DNA from: an uncultured Planctomycetota bacterium
Lineage (GTDB): Bacteria; Planctomycetota; GCA-002687715; CAIWVZ01
Direction: 5' to 3'
DNA: 32,311 nt
Assembly: GCA_903916245.1 (NCBI GenBank)
Contig: CAIWVZ010000155.1
Location: 1-32,311, forward strand
Made by a program: the position numbers and the translations under genes. The notes under the pieces are model-generated. The model searched no databases. It saw nothing but the letters and a program-made list of their open reading frames with translations, and was not told the origin of the DNA. Shown here one piece after another: positions 23,520 to 31,985 of this stretch. Numbering within the stretch: the stretch's first letter is position 1; every line of letters begins with the position of its first letter.

Positions 23520-25259
23520 TCAGCCGAGGCGCGCGAGCAGATCGAGCCGCTGACGCTCCATCTCGGCGGGGAGACGGCTGCCGAACTTCGCGAAGAATTC
23601 CGCGACGTTCTCGGCTTCCGCCTTCCACTCGCCCGCGTCCACGTTGAACAGATCCGCGCGCGTCGCGTCGTCGAGATCGAGACCCGACATGTCGACGGCA
23701 CCCGGGGCGGGCAAGTGTCCGATCGCACTCTCGACGGCGGCGCCGCCGCCGTTGCAGCGATCGATCACCCAGCGGAGGACGCGGAGATTCTCGCCGAATC
23801 CCGGCCACACGAACTTGCCGGCCGCGTTTTGGCGGAACCAGTTCACGTGGAAGATCTTCGGCGCGTGCTTCATGCGACCGCCCATGCGCAACCAATGTGC
23901 GAAATAGTCGCCCATGTTGTAGCCGCAGAACGGAAGCATCGCCATCGGATCGCGACGCACGACGCCGACCGCACCGGTCTGCGCGGCGGTCGTCTCCGAC
24001 GCCACCGACGCTCCGACGTAGACGCCGTGATTCCAGTCGCGAGCCTGATAGACGAGCGGTGCGGTGCGCGCACGACGTCCGCCGAAGATGATCGCGGAGA
24101 TCGGAACGCCTTGGGGGTCTTCCCACTTCGGCGAGATCGAGGGGCACTGTGCCGCGGGTGCCGTGAAACGCGCGTTCGGGTGGGCCGCCTTTTCGGTCGA
24201 ACCCTTCGCCCACGGCTGTCCCTTCCAGTCGGTCAGGGTTTCCGGGACTTCGCCGTCGATCCCTTCCCACCACGGCATCCCGTCCTTCGTGACGGCGACG
24301 TTCGTGAAGATCGAGTTCTTCTTGAGGGACGCCATCGCGTTCGGATTCGTCTTCGAACCCGTTCCCGGGGCGACGCCGAAGAAGCCCGCTTCCGGGTTGA
24401 TCGCCCAAAGGCGGCCGTCCGGACCGACGCGCATCCAAGCGATGTCGTCGCCGACCGTCCACACCTTCCACCCCTTCTGACTCGCGGGCGGAACGAGCAT
24501 CGCGAGGTTGGTCTTTCCGCAGGCCGACGGGAACGCCGCCGCGACGTAGGTCGTTTCTCCCTGCGGATTTTCGATGCCGACGATCAGCATGTGTTCGGCG
24601 AACCAACCCTCTTCGCGCGCTTGCGTGCTCGCGATGCGGAGGGCGAAGCACTTCTTGCCGAGGAGGGCGTTTCCGCCGTAGCCGGAGCCGATCGACCAGA
24701 TCAGCTTCTCTTCGGGGAAGTGCATGATGAACCGGCGGTCGGGCGACAGGTCGCCGAGCGAGTGCAGCCCCTTCACGAAATCGGACGAGTGGCCGAGCTG
24801 GCGCAGCGCGACGTCACCCATGCGGGTCATGATCCGCATGTTGACGACGACGTACGGCGAGTCGGTGATTTCGACACCGACCTTCGACGAGGGCGACCCG
24901 ACCGGCCCCATGAGGTAAGGCACCACGTACATGGTGCGTCCCGCCATGCAGCCGTCGTAGAGCGGCAGCATTTGGGCGCGCCCTTCTTCGGGCGACTTCC
25001 AGTAGTTGTTGGGGCCGGCGTCGTCCTTCGACGGCGTGCAGATGAACGTCAGGTGCTCCGTGCGGGCGACGTCGTTCGGGTTCGAGCGGTGGAGGTAGCT
25101 GTTCGGGTAGGCGTCGTTGAGTTTCGACAGCACGCCGGAAGCCGTCATCTCGTTGATGAGACGGGTGTTCTCGGCGTCCGAACCGTCGCACCATTCGATC
25201 TTCGCGGGCTTGCAAAGCGCCGCGCACTCGTCGACCCAGGACTTCAGGGCTGCGTTCAC
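23520..25259 (-). CDS. pckG: Phosphoenolpyruvate carboxykinase (GTP)
   Basis: [95 protein letters not shown] start at 25259 chosen (ORF track extends upstream). Confidence 0.93.
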
Positions 25260-25536
25260 TGTCGATCTCGCTGGCGTAAGTAGATGAGAACGAGTCTCAC
25301 CGAAGAACGCCCTCCGGCCCCCCGGCGCGAACCGGAGGCCCCGAGGACGGGAACCCTTCGATGTTGCCAAGTCTCGGGCCTCCCGCCAACGCGTTTCCGC
25401 GGAGTTCCTCGGCGACCGATCCCGCGGGAAAATCGTGCGAAACCGACGTCTCGCAGCGGGTTCCGCGAAGCACGAAAAACCGTCCCGTCATCTAAGATCT
25501 TCGAGTCGGAACCACGCACCGACGACCGGAGATGCC

Positions 25537-26163
25537 ATGGGTGGTCATGCAGAAGAGGGCAAGGGGTCCGTTTCACGCCGCGGATTCCTGAAGAGTGCGG
25601 GCGTCGCGGCCGCGGCGACGTCCCTGATCGACGACGCGAAGAAGGCGATGGAGCCGGTCGGCCCCGCGCCGGCGGCGGCCGTTCGCGGCGAGACCGAGAT
25701 CCGCTTCAAACTGAACGGCAAGGAAACCGTCGCGAAGGTTCCTCCGTCGATGACGCTCCTCGAACTGCTCCGCGAACGCTTGGACATGACGGGGACGAAG
25801 CAGGTCTGCGACCGCGGAGCCTGCGGAGCGTGCACCGTTCATCTCGACGGACGCACCGTCAACTCTTGTCTGCTGCTCGCGATGGACGCGACCGGACGGG
25901 ACGTGACGACGGTCGAAGGGCTCGCCGTCGGCGACCGCCTGCACCCGGTGCAGCAGGGCTTCGTCGAAGAGGACGCGATGCAATGCGGGTTCTGCACCCC
26001 CGGCATGGTGATGTCGTGCGCGGCGCTCCTCGCCAAGAATCCCGCCCCGACGCGCGCCGAATGCGCCGAAGGCATTTCGGGGAACATCTGCCGCTGCGGC
26101 ACCTACCTGAACATCTTCCGCGCGATGGATCGCGCGTCGGCGCTCGCCAAGGGAGGCAAGTGA
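25537..26163 (+). CDS. Molybdenum hydroxylase small (2x[2Fe-2S]) subunit with Tat signal
   Basis: SVSRRGFLKSAGVAAAATS (Tat-like RR motif); CDRGACGACTVHLDGRTVNSC and CGFCTPGMVMS...GNICRCGTYLNI. Confidence 0.93.
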   Translation: MGGHAEEGKGSVSRRGFLKSAGVAAAATSLIDDAKKAMEPVGPAPAAAVRGETEIRFKLNGKETVAKVPPSMTLLELLRERLDMTGTKQVCDRGACGACTVHLDGRTVNSCLLLAMDATGRDVTTVEGLAVGDRLHPVQQGFVEEDAMQCGFCTPGMVMSCAALLAKNPAPTRAECAEGISGNICRCGTYLNIFRAMDRASALAKGGK

Positions 26164-26164
26164 G

Positions 26165-28459
26165 ATGAACGCCGACGATCCCGTGATCCCCGTCGATCCG
26201 CAGGACCCGGCTCCGCGCCGACGCCGCAACCAGCAGGACGGCGCCCGCGGCGGCAAGCCGTTCAAGTTCGGGCAAAAGGGCGACGTCCGCGAAGTCGCCG
26301 TCAACGTGCCGCCCGATGAACCACCTCCGTGGCAGTTCGGCGATACCCACGCCGTAGTCGGACAACGCACGCCTCGCGTCGACGCGGTGGCGAAGGTCAC
26401 CGGCAAAGCCCGTTACGCCTACGACATGAATCTTCCGGGGATGGTGTGGGCGGCCTTCGTGCGTTGCCCCCACGCACGCGCGAAGGTGACCGCGGTCGAC
26501 TACGCGGAAGCATTGAAGATTCCCGGCGTCCTCGTCGCGAAGGACTACGGATCGAAGGAGATCCGTTACGCGCTCCAGCACTTCGGCATCGTCGCCGCGG
26601 AAACGCACGCGGCTTGCCTCGAAGCCGTTCGCGCGGTGAAGGCGACGTTCGAAGTCCTCCCCCACGCCGCGCGCATGGACCAAGCGCTCGCGCCGGATGC
26701 GCCGCGCGTCCACGCCGAGCGCCCGAACAAGACCGGCGACGATTTCCGTCCCGAAGCCGTCGCCGCCTTCGAAAAAGCGGCTCAAGGCTGCGACGCCGTC
26801 GTCTCGGGCATCGCGACGACCGAAGTGCAGACGCACATGTGCCTCGAACCGCACGGCGTGACCGCCCGCTTCGAGGCCCCCGACCGCGCCACGGTGTGGG
26901 CGTCCACACAAGCGACGTTCGGCGCTCGCGGCGAAGTCGCCCGCGTGCTCAAAGTGCCCGAAGCGAACGTGACGGTGATCGCGCACTACATGGGCGGAGG
27001 CTTCGGATCTAAGTTCTCGCTCGGCGTCGCGGGTGCGGCCGCATGCACCCTTTCGAAAGAGCTCGGCCGCCCGGTCAAGTTGATGCTCGAGCGTCGCGCC
27101 GAGCACGCGCAGGGCGGCAACCGACCGTCGTCGGTGCAGGAGATGTCCCTCGGCGTGAAGAAGGACGGCACGCTCGCCGCCTACAAGGTGTCGAAGACGG
27201 GAACCGGCGGCATCGGTGGCGGCGCGGGCGCGGCGAATCCGATGATCTACGACTTCGGTGAAGTCGCCGAAGCGGATTTCGAAGTCGCGACCAACGCGGG
27301 TGCCGCGGCGGCCATGCGCGCACCACGCCACCCTCAGGGGTCCTTCGCGCTCGAAACGATCATGAATCTCGCGGCGGAAGCGATCGGGATGGATCCGCTC
27401 GAACTTCGCCGCAAGAACGACAAGCACCCGATCCGCGCGCGCCAATACGTCGAAGGTGCGAAACGCTTCGGCTGGGACAAACGGACTCCGAGCGGTTCCG
27501 GAAAGGGTCCGATCAAGAAGGGCATGGGCGTCGCGTCCTCCCTCTGGTACGCGCTCGGCGGACGCGGAGCCCAAGTGCTCTGTCGTATCCGGAAGGACGG
27601 ATCGGTCGAGATCCGCAACGGCGCTCAGGACATCGGCGTCGGAACGAAGACGATCCTCGCGATGGTGGCCGCCGAAGAACTCGGCATTCCCCTCTCCCGC
27701 GTGACGCCGTTCCTCGGCGACACGAACGACCCGATCGGTCCCGCTTCGGGCGGATCGACGACGGCACCCACCATCATGCCCGCCGCGCGCACCGCGGCGT
27801 TCATGGCGGGACGGTCGCTCCGCGAGATCGTCGCGAAGGCGTGGAACTGCGGCGCCGACGACCTCGCTCTCGGCGGCGGCAAGGTGCTCCACCTGAAGGA
27901 CGGATCGAAGTCGATGACGTTCGAAAAGGCGTGCGCGCTCATGCCGGGCGACGAAATCGCGGAACTCGGCAAGCGGACGGGCAACTACGCCGCCTACGAA
28001 GGTCAGACCGGCGGCGTGCACTTCGCCGAAGTCGAAGTCGACACCGAAGACGGGACGATCTCGGTCACGCGCTACCTGGCGCTGCAGGACGCGGGGACGA
28101 TCCTCAATCCCCTCACCGCCGAATCTCAAGTCAACGGAGCGATCGTGCAGGGCGTTTCCTACGCGCTCTTCGAGGAGCGCATCCTCGACCGCCAACTCGG
28201 CCAACAGGTCAACGCCGACATGGAGATGTACAAGATCGCGGGCCCGAAGGACATGCCGCGCGCGGAAGTGATCCTGACGGAAGTCGTCAACGGGGCGAAC
28301 AACGTCGGCGTCGCGGGACTCGGCGAAGGGCCTTCGGTTCCCGTCGCCGCCGCCATCGCGGGTGCGGTTCACAACGCGCTCGGCTTCCCCGTGTGGTCGC
28401 TCCCGATGACTCCGGACCGCGTCCTCGCGGCCATCGCCGCGAAGGAGAAGGGCAAATGA
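26165..28459 (+). CDS. Xanthine dehydrogenase-family molybdopterin-binding large subunit
   Basis: QRTPRVDAVAKVTGKARYAYDMNLPGMVWAAFVRCPHARAKV, YMGGGFGSKF, AAMRAPRHPQGSFALE, GSVEIRNGAQDIGVGTKTILA, VAGLGEGPSVPVAAAIAGAVHNALG. Confidence 0.93.
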   Translation: MNADDPVIPVDPQDPAPRRRRNQQDGARGGKPFKFGQKGDVREVAVNVPPDEPPPWQFGDTHAVVGQRTPRVDAVAKVTGKARYAYDMNLPGMVWAAFVRCPHARAKVTAVDYAEALKIPGVLVAKDYGSKEIRYALQHFGIVAAETHAACLEAVRAVKATFEVLPHAARMDQALAPDAPRVHAERPNKTGDDFRPEAVAAFEKAAQGCDAVVSGIATTEVQTHMCLEPHGVTARFEAPDRATVWASTQATFGARGEVARVLKVPEANVTVIAHYMGGGFGSKFSLGVAGAAACTLSKELGRPVKLMLERRAEHAQGGNRPSSVQEMSLGVKKDGTLAAYKVSKTGTGGIGGGAGAANPMIYDFGEVAEADFEVATNAGAAAAMRAPRHPQGSFALETIMNLAAEAIGMDPLELRRKNDKHPIRARQYVEGAKRFGWDKRTPSGSGKGPIKKGMGVASSLWYALGGRGAQVLCRIRKDGSVEIRNGAQDIGVGTKTILAMVAAEELGIPLSRVTPFLGDTNDPIGPASGGSTTAPTIMPAARTAAFMAGRSLREIVAKAWNCGADDLALGGGKVLHLKDGSKSMTFEKACALMPGDEIAELGKRTGNYAAYEGQTGGVHFAEVEVDTEDGTISVTRYLALQDAGTILNPLTAESQVNGAIVQGVSYALFEERILDRQLGQQVNADMEMYKIAGPKDMPRAEVILTEVVNGANNVGVAGLGEGPSVPVAAAIAGAVHNALGFPVWSLPMTPDRVLAAIAAKEKGK

Positions 28460-29463
28460 AGGACTTCACCTACGTGCTGCCGAAGGACGCGGCCGAAGCG
28501 GCCCGCGCCGCCGCCGCACCGAATTGCGCTCTGAAGGGCGCGGGCACCGATCTCGTCGATCGCATGAAGGAAGGCGTCACGCGCCCCGACACGGTGGTGA
28601 ATCTCCTCACCGCGACCGATCTCCGAAGCCCGATTCGGGAAGAGAACGGACGCATCGTCATGGGCGGTGCGACCACCCTCGCGGAGGTCGCCGAATCGGC
28701 GCTCATCCGCAAGGTGGCGCCCGGCTTTGCCGACGCGGCCGCGGAGGCCGCGACGCCTCAGATTCGAAACCGCGGGACGGTGGCGGGCAACCTCTGCCAA
28801 CGTCCTCGTTGTTGGTACTTCCGGAACGACACGTACGCGTGTTCGAAGAAGGGCGGCGAGACCTGCTACTCCATCGAAGGCGAAAACAAGTACCACGCCA
28901 TCTTCGAGAACGTGACGTGCAACATCGTCCACCCGTCGAATCTCGCACCGATCCTTCAAGTGCTCGGGGGAACGCTCCATGTCGTCACTGCGAACGGGAC
29001 CGACGTCGTCGCTTCCGACGTCGCGGTGAAGGACTTCTGGGTGCGACCGGAAGAAGACATTTCGCGTGAAAACATCCTCGTCGCGGGACAGGTCGTCCGC
29101 GAAGTGTCGTTCCCGATTCCACAGGGGATGACGGGATCGTCGTACGTCGAAACCCGCGAGAAGGCGTCGTTCGACTGGGCGCTCACCTCCTGCGCGGCGG
29201 CGCTGACGCTCGACGGCGGCAAGATCGCCTCGGCATCCGTGGTGCTGTCGTCGGTCGCTCCGACGCCGTTGCAACTCGAAGCCGTGGAGAAATGGCTCGT
29301 CGGCAAGGCGCCCTCGGACGCGTTGTTCCGCGAAGCGGGAACGAAGGCGACGGACGGAGCGACGCCCATGCGGGACAACGCCTACAAGATCACGTTGACG
29401 GCCGTGGTGGTACGCCGTGCGCTTTCGGCGGCCGCCGCTCGTGCGACCGGAGGTGGCAAATGA
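28456..29463 (+). CDS. Molybdenum hydroxylase FAD-binding medium subunit with Cys-rich (probable [4Fe-4S]) insertion
   Basis: ATGA overlap with the large subunit gene; GGATTLAEVAES, TPQIRNRGTVAGNLCQRPRCWYFRNDTYACSKKGGETCYSIEGENKYHAIFENVTCNIVHPSNLAPILQVLGG. Confidence 0.92.
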   Translation: MKDFTYVLPKDAAEAARAAAAPNCALKGAGTDLVDRMKEGVTRPDTVVNLLTATDLRSPIREENGRIVMGGATTLAEVAESALIRKVAPGFADAAAEAATPQIRNRGTVAGNLCQRPRCWYFRNDTYACSKKGGETCYSIEGENKYHAIFENVTCNIVHPSNLAPILQVLGGTLHVVTANGTDVVASDVAVKDFWVRPEEDISRENILVAGQVVREVSFPIPQGMTGSSYVETREKASFDWALTSCAAALTLDGGKIASASVVLSSVAPTPLQLEAVEKWLVGKAPSDALFREAGTKATDGATPMRDNAYKITLTAVVVRRALSAAAARATGGGK

Positions 29464-29717
29464 GAGGTGACCCGCGAGATCCCGATTCGATCGTCCCCGC
29501 GCGGCGGCTCGGCGCGCACGTCTGCCCCGATCTGCGCACGAAGACGATGTACTTGAACGAAGAAGCGCGCGGAGACGCCGACGATTCCTTCGGGGGGCGT
29601 TCGCACGCGTTCTGGTGCCTCAAGACGATGGAGGCGATCGGTCCCGACGACCGCCCGATCGGTCCGACGCTCTGCGGACGCGACCGCGCGTGCTGCGGCC
29701 TCCCGCCCGAAGTGTGA
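29460..29717 (+). CDS. Small Cys-rich protein (85 aa), fourth gene of the molybdenum hydroxylase operon
   Basis: ATGA overlap with the medium-subunit stop; MRGDPRDPDSIVPARRLGAHVCPDLRTKTMYLNEEARGDADDSFGGRSHAFWCLKTMEAIGPDDRPIGPTLCGRDRACCGLPPEV (Cys at 22, 53, 72, 78, 79). Confidence 0.72.
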   Translation: MRGDPRDPDSIVPARRLGAHVCPDLRTKTMYLNEEARGDADDSFGGRSHAFWCLKTMEAIGPDDRPIGPTLCGRDRACCGLPPEV

Positions 29718-31985
29718 TCAGCCCCGGCGGCCCGGTCGCGAGGTCGGGCCGCTCGTCGGGACTTCTTTGCGCGCCGGCGCCATCAACGGGCCCGTGACCC
29801 GCCCTTGGAGGCGGTGTCCCGCGTCGTCCTCGAAGACGATGTCGCATCCCCAGCCGGCCGCCTCGAGGGCCCGCGCTCCTACCTCGAGATCGCACGTGAG
29901 CAGGTCGTAGTTGGCGCCCTTGATCCCCGCGGTCGGACTCAACGCCGCTTCGGCGAGGACATTGCCCGATCGAACGTCCGTGATGCGCAGCGTCGCGCGG
30001 AACCCGAAGGCGCGCGGCTTCAATCGGTTTTCGAGCAGCAATACGTGGCGTCCCGCGCCGAGCGCCACCTTGCCGTCGCGCGGCATCCGACCGTCGACCA
30101 GTTTCAACTCGCATGCGGGCTCACCGGGCGGCGGCATCGGGCGCACCAGCACGACGTCCGCGACGCTCGTCACGCCCGCGGGCGTCTTCGCGACGACGCG
30201 GACGGGTCCCTCGAGACGCGACCCGGAGAGAGCGAGAATCGCGTCGACTCCCCCGGGGCGCGACTCCGCGGCGATCAACGCCCCGACGGGTTCCGCCGCA
30301 ACCTCGGGAACGGCTCCTTCGAGAAGGACCGGGACCTTCGTCGTCCCGCGCTCGTCGTCGACCACGATGCGCGCGACGGACGGAATCTGAATCCGGCACC
30401 GCACTTCGCGTTTCGGAACACGAAAACGGCTTTCGGTGCGATTTCCCGCGACGTCGACGGCCTCGATGCGTACGTCCCCACCTTCGAGATCGTGCAGTGG
30501 GAAAGAGACGGACGCCGCTTCGGGGAACTCGCCGACGGATCTTCCATCGCGCCGGATCCGGAGCGTCACGGGTCCTTGGTCGTCCGACGTTTCAATGCGC
30601 AGCGTCCCGGAGGCGACATCGTCGACGACGAGGTCGTCGATCGCCGTACGACGTCCGTCGGCGAACGTCGTCGCGACGACGAGGGACGGTGGCTCGCGGT
30701 CGATGCGATACGGGCCTCCCGAGACGGGAATCGTCACGCCGTCGGGAGTCACGAGCGACAGTGTCACCCGCCCCGACGCAAGAAGCGGTAGCTCGAGCAC
30801 GACGTCGCGCGGCGACCCCGATCTCGGGAGCAGTGCCTCCGCGATCGGTACGGCCTCGACCTCGGCGCCGAAAACGACGAGTCGGGTCCCCGACGGAGGT
30901 TCGACACCTTCGATCGCGACTCCGAGCGTCACGCTCGACGTCCGGAAGGCGGGCGCGATTCCGCGCCCCGAAGTCACGCCGTTGACGGAAACGATCGACG
31001 CGCTCGGCGGCGGAACCGGGACGGGGCGATTCCACCACCAACCGCCCGCCACGACGGCGAGGGCCACGACGCCGGCCGCCGCGAGACGTCCGCCGCTCCC
31101 GCGACGGATGCCTCGCACGGCGTCGCGAAGATCCATGCGAAACGCATCGACGGAACTCTGTCGGGCTTCGGGCTCCTTCGAGAGAGCGCGCGCGACGACC
31201 GCCTCGACCGCCGCGGGAAGACCCGGAACTCCGTCGGCGAGCGACGGCGGAGCACGGTGGAGGATGGCGTGGCGAACGGCGTCGGTGGACGCTCCCTCGA
31301 AGGGGCGACGTCCCGACAGCAACTCGTACGCGATGACGCCGAGCGCCCATACATCCACCAGCCGGGCATCCGATGCGGCGTTCCGATCGAACTCTTCGGG
31401 AGCCATGTACGGGACCGTCCCGTGGATCACGGGATCACCGACCATTGTGGTGTCGTCGACGCGCCGCGCCGTTCCGAAGTCGACCACGAAGGGGCGTGGG
31501 ACGCGCCCTCCCGAGATGATGATGTTCTGCGGCTTGAGGTCGTGATGGATCACGTCGTGGGCGTGGGCCTCGGCGATGATGCCCGCGATGCCGTCGAGCA
31601 GCGCCGCGGCGCGCAACGTGCGCCGCAACCCCGGCGGCGGTAGTTCGAGCGCGGCCCATCGCGAAAGGTCCACCCCCTCGCGGTAATCCATCACGATGTA
31701 CGGAAGGCCGTCCTCGATCCCGACGTCTTGAACTTTGACGACGCCGTCGACGTCCTTCAGCCGGAGAAGATGTTGAGCCTCGGCGAGATGCCGCTCCTTC
31801 AGCGTCGTCGGATCCTTGCCCGTCGCCCGATAGAGCTTGACCGCGAGAAATCCACCTTCGATGTTCGGGTGACGACAAAGGAACACGGTGGCCATCCCGC
31901 CGCGACCGATCTCGCGGACGACGGGATACCGACCGATGTGCGTGCGGGCCGGGTTTCCGGCGTTCATCGTCCCCATCTCGGGCAT
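29718..31985 (-). CDS. Transmembrane Ser/Thr protein kinase with large C-terminal extracytoplasmic region
   Basis: IGRGGMATVFLCRH, LAVKLYRA, VIHHDLKPQNIIIS, VVDFGTARR, VPYMAPEEF, DVWALGVIAYELLSGRRPFEG; TM LAAAGVVALAVVAGGWWW; C-terminal YRIDREPPSL...VDVAGNRTESRF Ig-like segment. Confidence 0.93.
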   Translation of the reverse strand: MPEMGTMNAGNPARTHIGRYPVVREIGRGGMATVFLCRHPNIEGGFLAVKLYRATGKDPTTLKERHLAEAQHLLRLKDVDGVVKVQDVGIEDGLPYIVMDYREGVDLSRWAALELPPPGLRRTLRAAALLDGIAGIIAEAHAHDVIHHDLKPQNIIISGGRVPRPFVVDFGTARRVDDTTMVGDPVIHGTVPYMAPEEFDRNAASDARLVDVWALGVIAYELLSGRRPFEGASTDAVRHAILHRAPPSLADGVPGLPAAVEAVVARALSKEPEARQSSVDAFRMDLRDAVRGIRRGSGGRLAAAGVVALAVVAGGWWWNRPVPVPPPSASIVSVNGVTSGRGIAPAFRTSSVTLGVAIEGVEPPSGTRLVVFGAEVEAVPIAEALLPRSGSPRDVVLELPLLASGRVTLSLVTPDGVTIPVSGGPYRIDREPPSLVVATTFADGRRTAIDDLVVDDVASGTLRIETSDDQGPVTLRIRRDGRSVGEFPEAASVSFPLHDLEGGDVRIEAVDVAGNRTESRFRVPKREVRCRIQIPSVARIVVDDERGTTKVPVLLEGAVPEVAAEPVGALIAAESRPGGVDAILALSGSRLEGPVRVVAKTPAGVTSVADVVLVRPMPPPGEPACELKLVDGRMPRDGKVALGAGRHVLLLENRLKPRAFGFRATLRITDVRSGNVLAEAALSPTAGIKGANYDLLTCDLEVGARALEAAGWGCDIVFEDDAGHRLQGRVTGPLMAPARKEVPTSGPTSRPGRRG

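What the first reader, a model, noticed from the sequence alone, without database searches (positions are those of the whole stretch)
29460..29717. 85-aa Cys-rich protein translationally coupled to the molybdenum hydroxylase operon
The start overlaps the medium-subunit stop as ATGA, the same coupling used between the large and medium subunits, so it behaves as the fourth operon gene. Five cysteines (HVCPDLRTK, FWCLKTM, LCGRDRACCG) suggest a metal or Fe-S site. I do not recognise it as a known Moco chaperone (XdhC/CoxF type). It could be an additional electron-transfer subunit, a cluster-assembly factor or a redox switch. This is the best candidate for an undescribed component here.
Basis: partly seen in the sequence, partly recalled or inferred. 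Interest (0 to 1): 0.6.

Follow-up and report, generated by a model that had tools for sequence, protein, structure and literature searches.

The report
Fourth Cys4 protein of molybdenum hydroxylase
A small protein family with four invariant cysteines, absent from the protein-family and structure libraries searched, is encoded directly after the FAD subunit in nearly every member of one clade of exported molybdenum aldehyde-oxidase-like enzymes in Planctomycetota, so it is probably an overlooked fourth part of that enzyme or of its assembly line.

Summary
The ORF at 29460-29717 is real: 85 aa, ATGA overlap with the FAD-subunit stop, a GGAGG 6 nt upstream, and purifying selection. It belongs to a family absent from Pfam and NCBIfam, with no relative in the PDB. 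A profile finds it in about 100 of 392 Planctomycetota genomes, nearly always one copy. All 101 strong matches lie downstream of a PaoB-like FAD subunit, and 100 of 112 such FAD genes have it (three exceptions are cut by a contig end). It is absent after 38 other FAD-subunit matches (mostly 4-hydroxybenzoyl-CoA-reductase-like) and from the one PaoABC-order operon seen.

On a large-subunit tree the trait needs one gain and one loss. Four of five cysteines (C22, C53, C72, C78), G61 and R76 are invariant. Linked small subunits have a Tat motif wherever readable; this protein has no export signal. XdhC occurs elsewhere in 39 of 40 genomes tested. In one family the enzyme has lost all FeSII and three of four [4Fe-4S] ligands, yet this protein keeps its four cysteines.

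Best reading: an undescribed fourth component of a PaoABC-like enzyme, probably a Cys4 (Fe-S?) electron-transfer subunit co-exported by Tat. An assembly factor is the main rival. Metal, location and function are untested.

The parts
25537..26163 (+). S subunit: Tat signal (SRRGFLK) plus two [2Fe-2S] domains (FeSII plant-type, FeSI Fer2_2)
   Evidence: Pfam Fer2_2 1.1e-30, Fer2 1.8e-7, TAT_signal 2e-5; all eight cluster Cys present; start chosen at the ATG at 25537 by inspection
26165..28459 (+). L subunit: Moco-binding, catalytic Glu721 in GLGEGP
   Evidence: Pfam MoCoBD_1 and MoCoBD_2, Ald_Xan_dh_C; Glu column; below all NCBIfam equivalog cut-offs, XdhA and PaoC models nearest
28456..29463 (+). 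M subunit: FAD-binding, PaoB-like, with [4Fe-4S] ligand cysteines C119, C129, C137, C155
   Evidence: Pfam FAD_binding_5 and CO_deh_flav_C; aligned to 5y6q_B, 5g5g_B (PaoB) and 1rm6_B
29449..29453 (+). GGAGG ribosome-binding-site-like sequence, 6 nt before ATG 29460
   Evidence: sequence
29460..29717 (+). Small Cys4 protein, C-x2-L-x2-K...WC-x2-T...GPD...C-x3-R-x-C; the fourth operon gene

Best explanation
The ORF encodes the fourth component of a Tat-exported, PaoABC-like molybdenum hydroxylase (order S-L-M-Cys4). SHOWN: the family exists, is tied to one enzyme clade, has four invariant cysteines and no signal peptide, while the linked small subunits carry a Tat motif. INFERRED: it binds the folded S-L-M complex in the cytoplasm, its four cysteines hold one metal centre (most likely an Fe-S cluster), it travels out with the complex on the S subunit's Tat signal as PaoB and PaoC do in E. 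coli, and in the periplasm it passes electrons from the FAD/[4Fe-4S] end of the enzyme, or around a lost FeSII/[4Fe-4S] relay, to an external acceptor such as a c-type cytochrome.
For: All 101 strong profile matches lie downstream of a PaoB-like FAD gene, and 100 of 112 such FAD genes have it, versus 0 of 38 in the list of other FAD matches (L132 has one gene inserted in between). On the L-subunit tree the trait needs 2 changes; the carrier clade has SH-aLRT 98 and contains one true absence. C22, C53, C72, C78, G61 and R76 are invariant in 52 diverse members. S subunits of carriers have an RRxFL-type Tat motif wherever the N-terminus was read; most of the 4-hydroxybenzoyl-CoA-reductase-like operons show none. 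PaoB and PaoC ride on PaoA's Tat signal (PMC4273604), and the PaoABC terminal acceptor is unknown (PMC3958847). In L071, L072 and L132 the S subunit lost all four FeSII ligands and the M subunit three of four [4Fe-4S] ligands, but FeSI, the catalytic Glu and the Cys4 protein are intact; five more loci (L041, L066, L086, L089, L090) lost only the M-subunit ligands. This fits a redox role that does not depend on those clusters and argues against a factor dedicated to building them. A secreted CxxCH protein gene follows in one genus (L073, L084, L085). Distances track L and M beyond shared ancestry (partial r 0.40 and 0.24).
Against: No metal binding, complex membership or export is shown. A conserved operon position also fits an assembly factor. 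There is no fold match, and the AlphaFold model is only moderate (pLDDT 77). Four cysteines could bind Zn or form disulfides. Several related S-L-M operons outside the clade lack the gene, so it is not universally required. The cytochrome neighbour is limited to one genus.
Confidence: 0.45

Rival explanations
1. A cytoplasmic assembly or proofreading factor specific to this clade: it binds the S-L-M complex (or the S subunit) through a Cys4 Zn or Fe-S site, holds back Tat export until the cofactors are in, and then lets go.
For: No export signal while the enzyme is exported; last operon gene, as E. coli paoD is (PMC3909100 abstract); dedicated chaperones are common for Tat-exported molybdoenzymes (PMC4273604); XdhC is not in these operons.
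Against: XdhC is encoded elsewhere in 39 of 40 genomes tested, so the Moco-insertion role is filled. It is kept where FeSII and the FAD-subunit cluster are lost, so it is not dedicated to those clusters. Related Tat-exported S-L-M operons do without it (L123-L130).
Confidence: 0.3
2. A structural, non-redox subunit whose four cysteines bind Zn or form two disulfides and which braces the FAD subunit or an oligomer interface.
For: Very short protein with a variable loop and invariant Cys, Gly and Arg; distances track L and M; retained when redox centres are lost.
Against: No CxxC knuckle typical of Zn sites (sequence); disulfides would not be expected to form before Tat export from the cytoplasm (general knowledge).
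Confidence: 0.17
3. A redox or metal-sensing regulator of the operon or enzyme (switch).
For: Cys-rich and small.
Against: No DNA-binding or known regulator domain; never found away from the enzyme operon, nearly always one copy per genome.
Confidence: 0.05

Closest known systems
E. coli PaoABC periplasmic aldehyde oxidoreductase (paoABCD)
   Same: Heterotrimer-type S (Tat), M (FAD with [4Fe-4S]-type Cys) and L (Moco) subunits; PaoB matches the M subunit at 8.7e-30; the PaoC model matches L at 3.1e-102, below its cut-off.
   Different: Gene order is S-M-L then paoD (an XdhC-type chaperone) in E. coli, S-L-M-Cys4 here. Chaperone elsewhere; no Cys4 gene in the PaoABC-order operon seen (G360, L131).
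Methylobacillus aldehyde oxidase (PDB 5y6q)
   Same: Closest solved relative of the M subunit (3.4e-39).
   Different: No relative of the small Cys4 protein was found among PDB chains.
4-hydroxybenzoyl-CoA reductase (HcrABC, 1rm6)
   Same: FAD subunit with an extra [4Fe-4S] (1rm6_B, 1.7e-25).
   Different: The HCR-like operons of Planctomycetota lack the Cys4 gene in all 20 loci read, and most show no Tat motif on the S subunit.
XdhC/PaoD/CoxF Moco chaperones
   Same: Operon-linked accessory protein of XO-family enzymes.
   Different: About 35 kDa for PaoD (PMC3909100 abstract) versus 85 aa; no XdhC match; XdhC is present separately.

Membership tests
PaoABC-type molybdenum hydroxylase (S, M, L) | Tat signal and two [2Fe-2S] motifs in S; PaoB-like FAD subunit with [4Fe-4S] Cys; Moco L subunit with catalytic Glu | tested here: met
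   (window enzyme)
PaoABC-type molybdenum hydroxylase (S, M, L) | NCBIfam equivalog cut-offs for PaoA or PaoC | tested here: not met
   166.5 vs 322 bits; 343.2 vs 1180 bits: a relative, not an orthologue by that standard
PaoABC-type molybdenum hydroxylase (S, M, L) | S-M-L gene order followed by paoD | tested here: not met
   order is S-L-M-Cys4
PaoABC-type molybdenum hydroxylase (S, M, L) | Aldehyde oxidation; MCD form of Moco | not testable with these tools
   needs enzyme assay and cofactor analysis
XdhC/PaoD/CoxF chaperone | XdhC_C / XdhC_CoxI domain | tested here: not met
   no Pfam or NCBIfam match
Known small Fe-S proteins (ferredoxin, HiPIP, rubredoxin) | Detectable sequence or fold similarity to a solved member | tested here: not met
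   profile vs PDB sequences: only antibody chance hits at E>0.8; Foldseek vs PDB: none (moderate model, so weak)
Known small Fe-S proteins (ferredoxin, HiPIP, rubredoxin) | Binds an Fe-S cluster through four Cys | not testable with these tools
   four invariant Cys make it possible, not shown

The most novel reading that the evidence does not exclude
A new Fe-S subunit family that makes a four-subunit molybdenum hydroxylase and opens a new electron exit. In one planctomycete family it has taken over the relay after the enzyme lost FeSII and the FAD-subunit [4Fe-4S], so electrons would leave the Mo site by a route not known in the xanthine oxidase family.
Probability: 0.2. Interest if true: 0.8.

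Novelty: new variant of a known kind. Interest (0 to 1): 0.58.

Why it matters
XO-family enzymes are described as having two [2Fe-2S] clusters, usually FAD, and Moco, plus in HCR and PaoB one [4Fe-4S]. No fourth Cys4 partner is named in the papers searched. The natural acceptor of PaoABC is unknown (PMC3958847). A dedicated extra component, fixed in one clade over many planctomycete families and kept where other clusters were lost, gives a direct handle on how electrons leave these exported enzymes, or on how their export is checked. It also defines a protein family that Pfam and NCBIfam do not hold.

Tried and rejected
Family libraries Pfam and NCBIfam with the single protein and with 52 members: nothing. 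PDB by sequence and by fold: nothing. 'Factor for the FAD-subunit [4Fe-4S]': weakened by eight loci that lost three ligands but keep the protein. 'XdhC substitute': weakened by XdhC in 39 of 40 genomes, although the window's own MAG (92% complete) has no match. Conserved further operon genes: none general; a secreted cytochrome-like gene in one genus only. So 'planctomycete-specific' is not claimed. Papers: no description found. A script time-out was rerun. The group table printed mislabels the window row and two truncated loci (L133, L135) as lacking the gene; one search repeats the count with correct labels (2 changes).

Full report
OBSERVATION. It overlaps the FAD-subunit stop as ATGA, as the FAD subunit itself overlaps the large subunit at 28456-28459. 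A GGAGG sits 6 nt upstream. The operon is S (25537-26163, Tat motif SRRGFLK), L (26165-28459), M (28456-29463), then this gene. On the opposite strand a protein kinase gene ends at 29718, right after it. The window is a Planctomycetota genome: its near relatives L002 and L003 are planctomycete MAGs.

FAMILY. The single protein finds 89 of 392 planctomycete genomes. A 52-member profile finds 101 genomes; 100 of them have a match at E<=6.6e-12, and the next matches are at 0.002 and 0.007. There is one copy per genome apart from one genome with two. Pfam, NCBIfam and PDB have no relative. Invariant residues are C22, C53, G61, C72, R76 and C78; L25, K28, T56, P62 and D63 are at 90% or more. The fifth cysteine (C79) is not conserved. 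Window versus L003 differences by codon position are 15/9/53.

LINKAGE. tblastn of the four window proteins on the fetched loci gave the order (S-)L-M-Cys4 wherever the locus was long enough; the only locus without it, L092, was a weak 29-residue chance match. Joining the two phylum searches, 100 of 112 PaoB-like FAD genes are followed by the gene at a median 27 nt between matched stretches; three of the 12 exceptions stop at a contig end. None of 38 further FAD matches has it. The two lists were split mainly by E-value, and the second contains one PaoABC-order operon (G360) and one truncated contig (G331). The one strong Cys4 match not joined to a listed FAD hit (G235) also lies next to an FAD fragment (L034). 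In G087 a second gene, GxxExxY-like by eye, has been inserted between M and Cys4 (L132).

EVOLUTION. On a large-subunit tree of 69 enzymes, all carriers fall in one 59-row group (SH-aLRT 98). That group also holds two truncated loci (L133, L135) and one true absence (L122). Presence needs two changes, i.e. one gain and one loss. Outside the group, related Tat-exported S-L-M operons (L123-L130), the PaoABC-order operon (L131) and the HCR-like operons lack it. This is a quick tree without bootstrap, and L130 and L131 are long branches.

ENZYME CLASS. The M subunit is closest to Methylobacillus aldehyde oxidase 5y6q and E. coli PaoB, and its four cluster cysteines (C119, C129, C137, C155) align with cysteines there. 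S subunits of carriers have a Tat motif wherever the N-terminus was read. Most HCR-like operons show none; the few RR matches there lie in upstream, probably untranslated, frame. L keeps the catalytic Glu. NCBIfam equivalog cut-offs for PaoA and PaoC are not reached, so it is PaoABC-like rather than PaoABC.

NATURAL EXPERIMENT. In L041, L066, L071, L072, L086, L089, L090 and L132 the FAD subunit has lost three of four [4Fe-4S] ligands. In L071, L072 and L132 (family f26) the S subunit has in addition lost all four FeSII cysteines, while FeSI, the catalytic Glu and the FAD-subunit glycine motifs remain. All eight keep the Cys4 protein. So it does not exist to build those clusters, and in f26 the usual FeSI-FeSII-FAD relay is missing a step that another centre would have to fill. 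That the Cys4 protein fills it is inference.

CHAPERONE TEST. XdhC_C is found in 39 of 40 genomes tested, both carriers and non-carriers, away from the operon. The window's own MAG has no match, which may reflect incompleteness. The protein is therefore not a general XdhC replacement. E. coli PaoD is described as a chaperone and not a subunit (PMC3958847), and PaoABC export needs all three subunits and probably a proofreading factor (PMC4273604), so a proofreading role remains a serious rival.

STRUCTURE. AlphaFold2 gives a moderate model (pLDDT 77, pTM 0.58) with two short strands at 25-29 and 49-53, next to C22 and including C53. No PDB fold matches.

NEIGHBOURS. No other gene is conserved across the loci. 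In L073, L084 and L085 (one genus) a secreted CxxCH protein gene follows directly (no Pfam match for its first 127 residues). Distance correlations favour L and M over S as partners; this is weak evidence.

VERDICT. Most likely it is a Cys4 electron-transfer subunit (0.45), otherwise an assembly or proofreading factor (0.30) or a structural subunit (0.17). Distribution outside Planctomycetota is unknown.

Noticed in passing
L071, L072, L132 (S and M subunits): Molybdenum hydroxylases that lost all four FeSII ligands and three of four [4Fe-4S] ligands but keep FeSI and the catalytic Glu.
   Followed up: partly
L035, L077, L130: S and L subunits lie in one continuous reading frame (892, 964 and 1103 aa), i.e. 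apparent natural S-L fusions.
   Followed up: partly
L123-L127 (genus g104): A different conserved ~120-aa ORF, without the four Cys and without a Pfam match, sits right after the FAD gene in related S-L-M operons.
   Followed up: partly
L073, L084, L085: A secreted CxxCH (cytochrome c-like) gene directly follows the Cys4 gene, then an aldehyde-dehydrogenase-like gene (by eye) further downstream.
   Followed up: partly
L132:5885-6260: A gene that reads by eye like the GxxExxY family, inserted between the FAD gene and the Cys4 gene.
   Followed up: no
window 23520-25370 (-): A 616-aa ORF that reads by eye as GTP-type PEP carboxykinase lies upstream of the operon, on the opposite strand.
   Followed up: no
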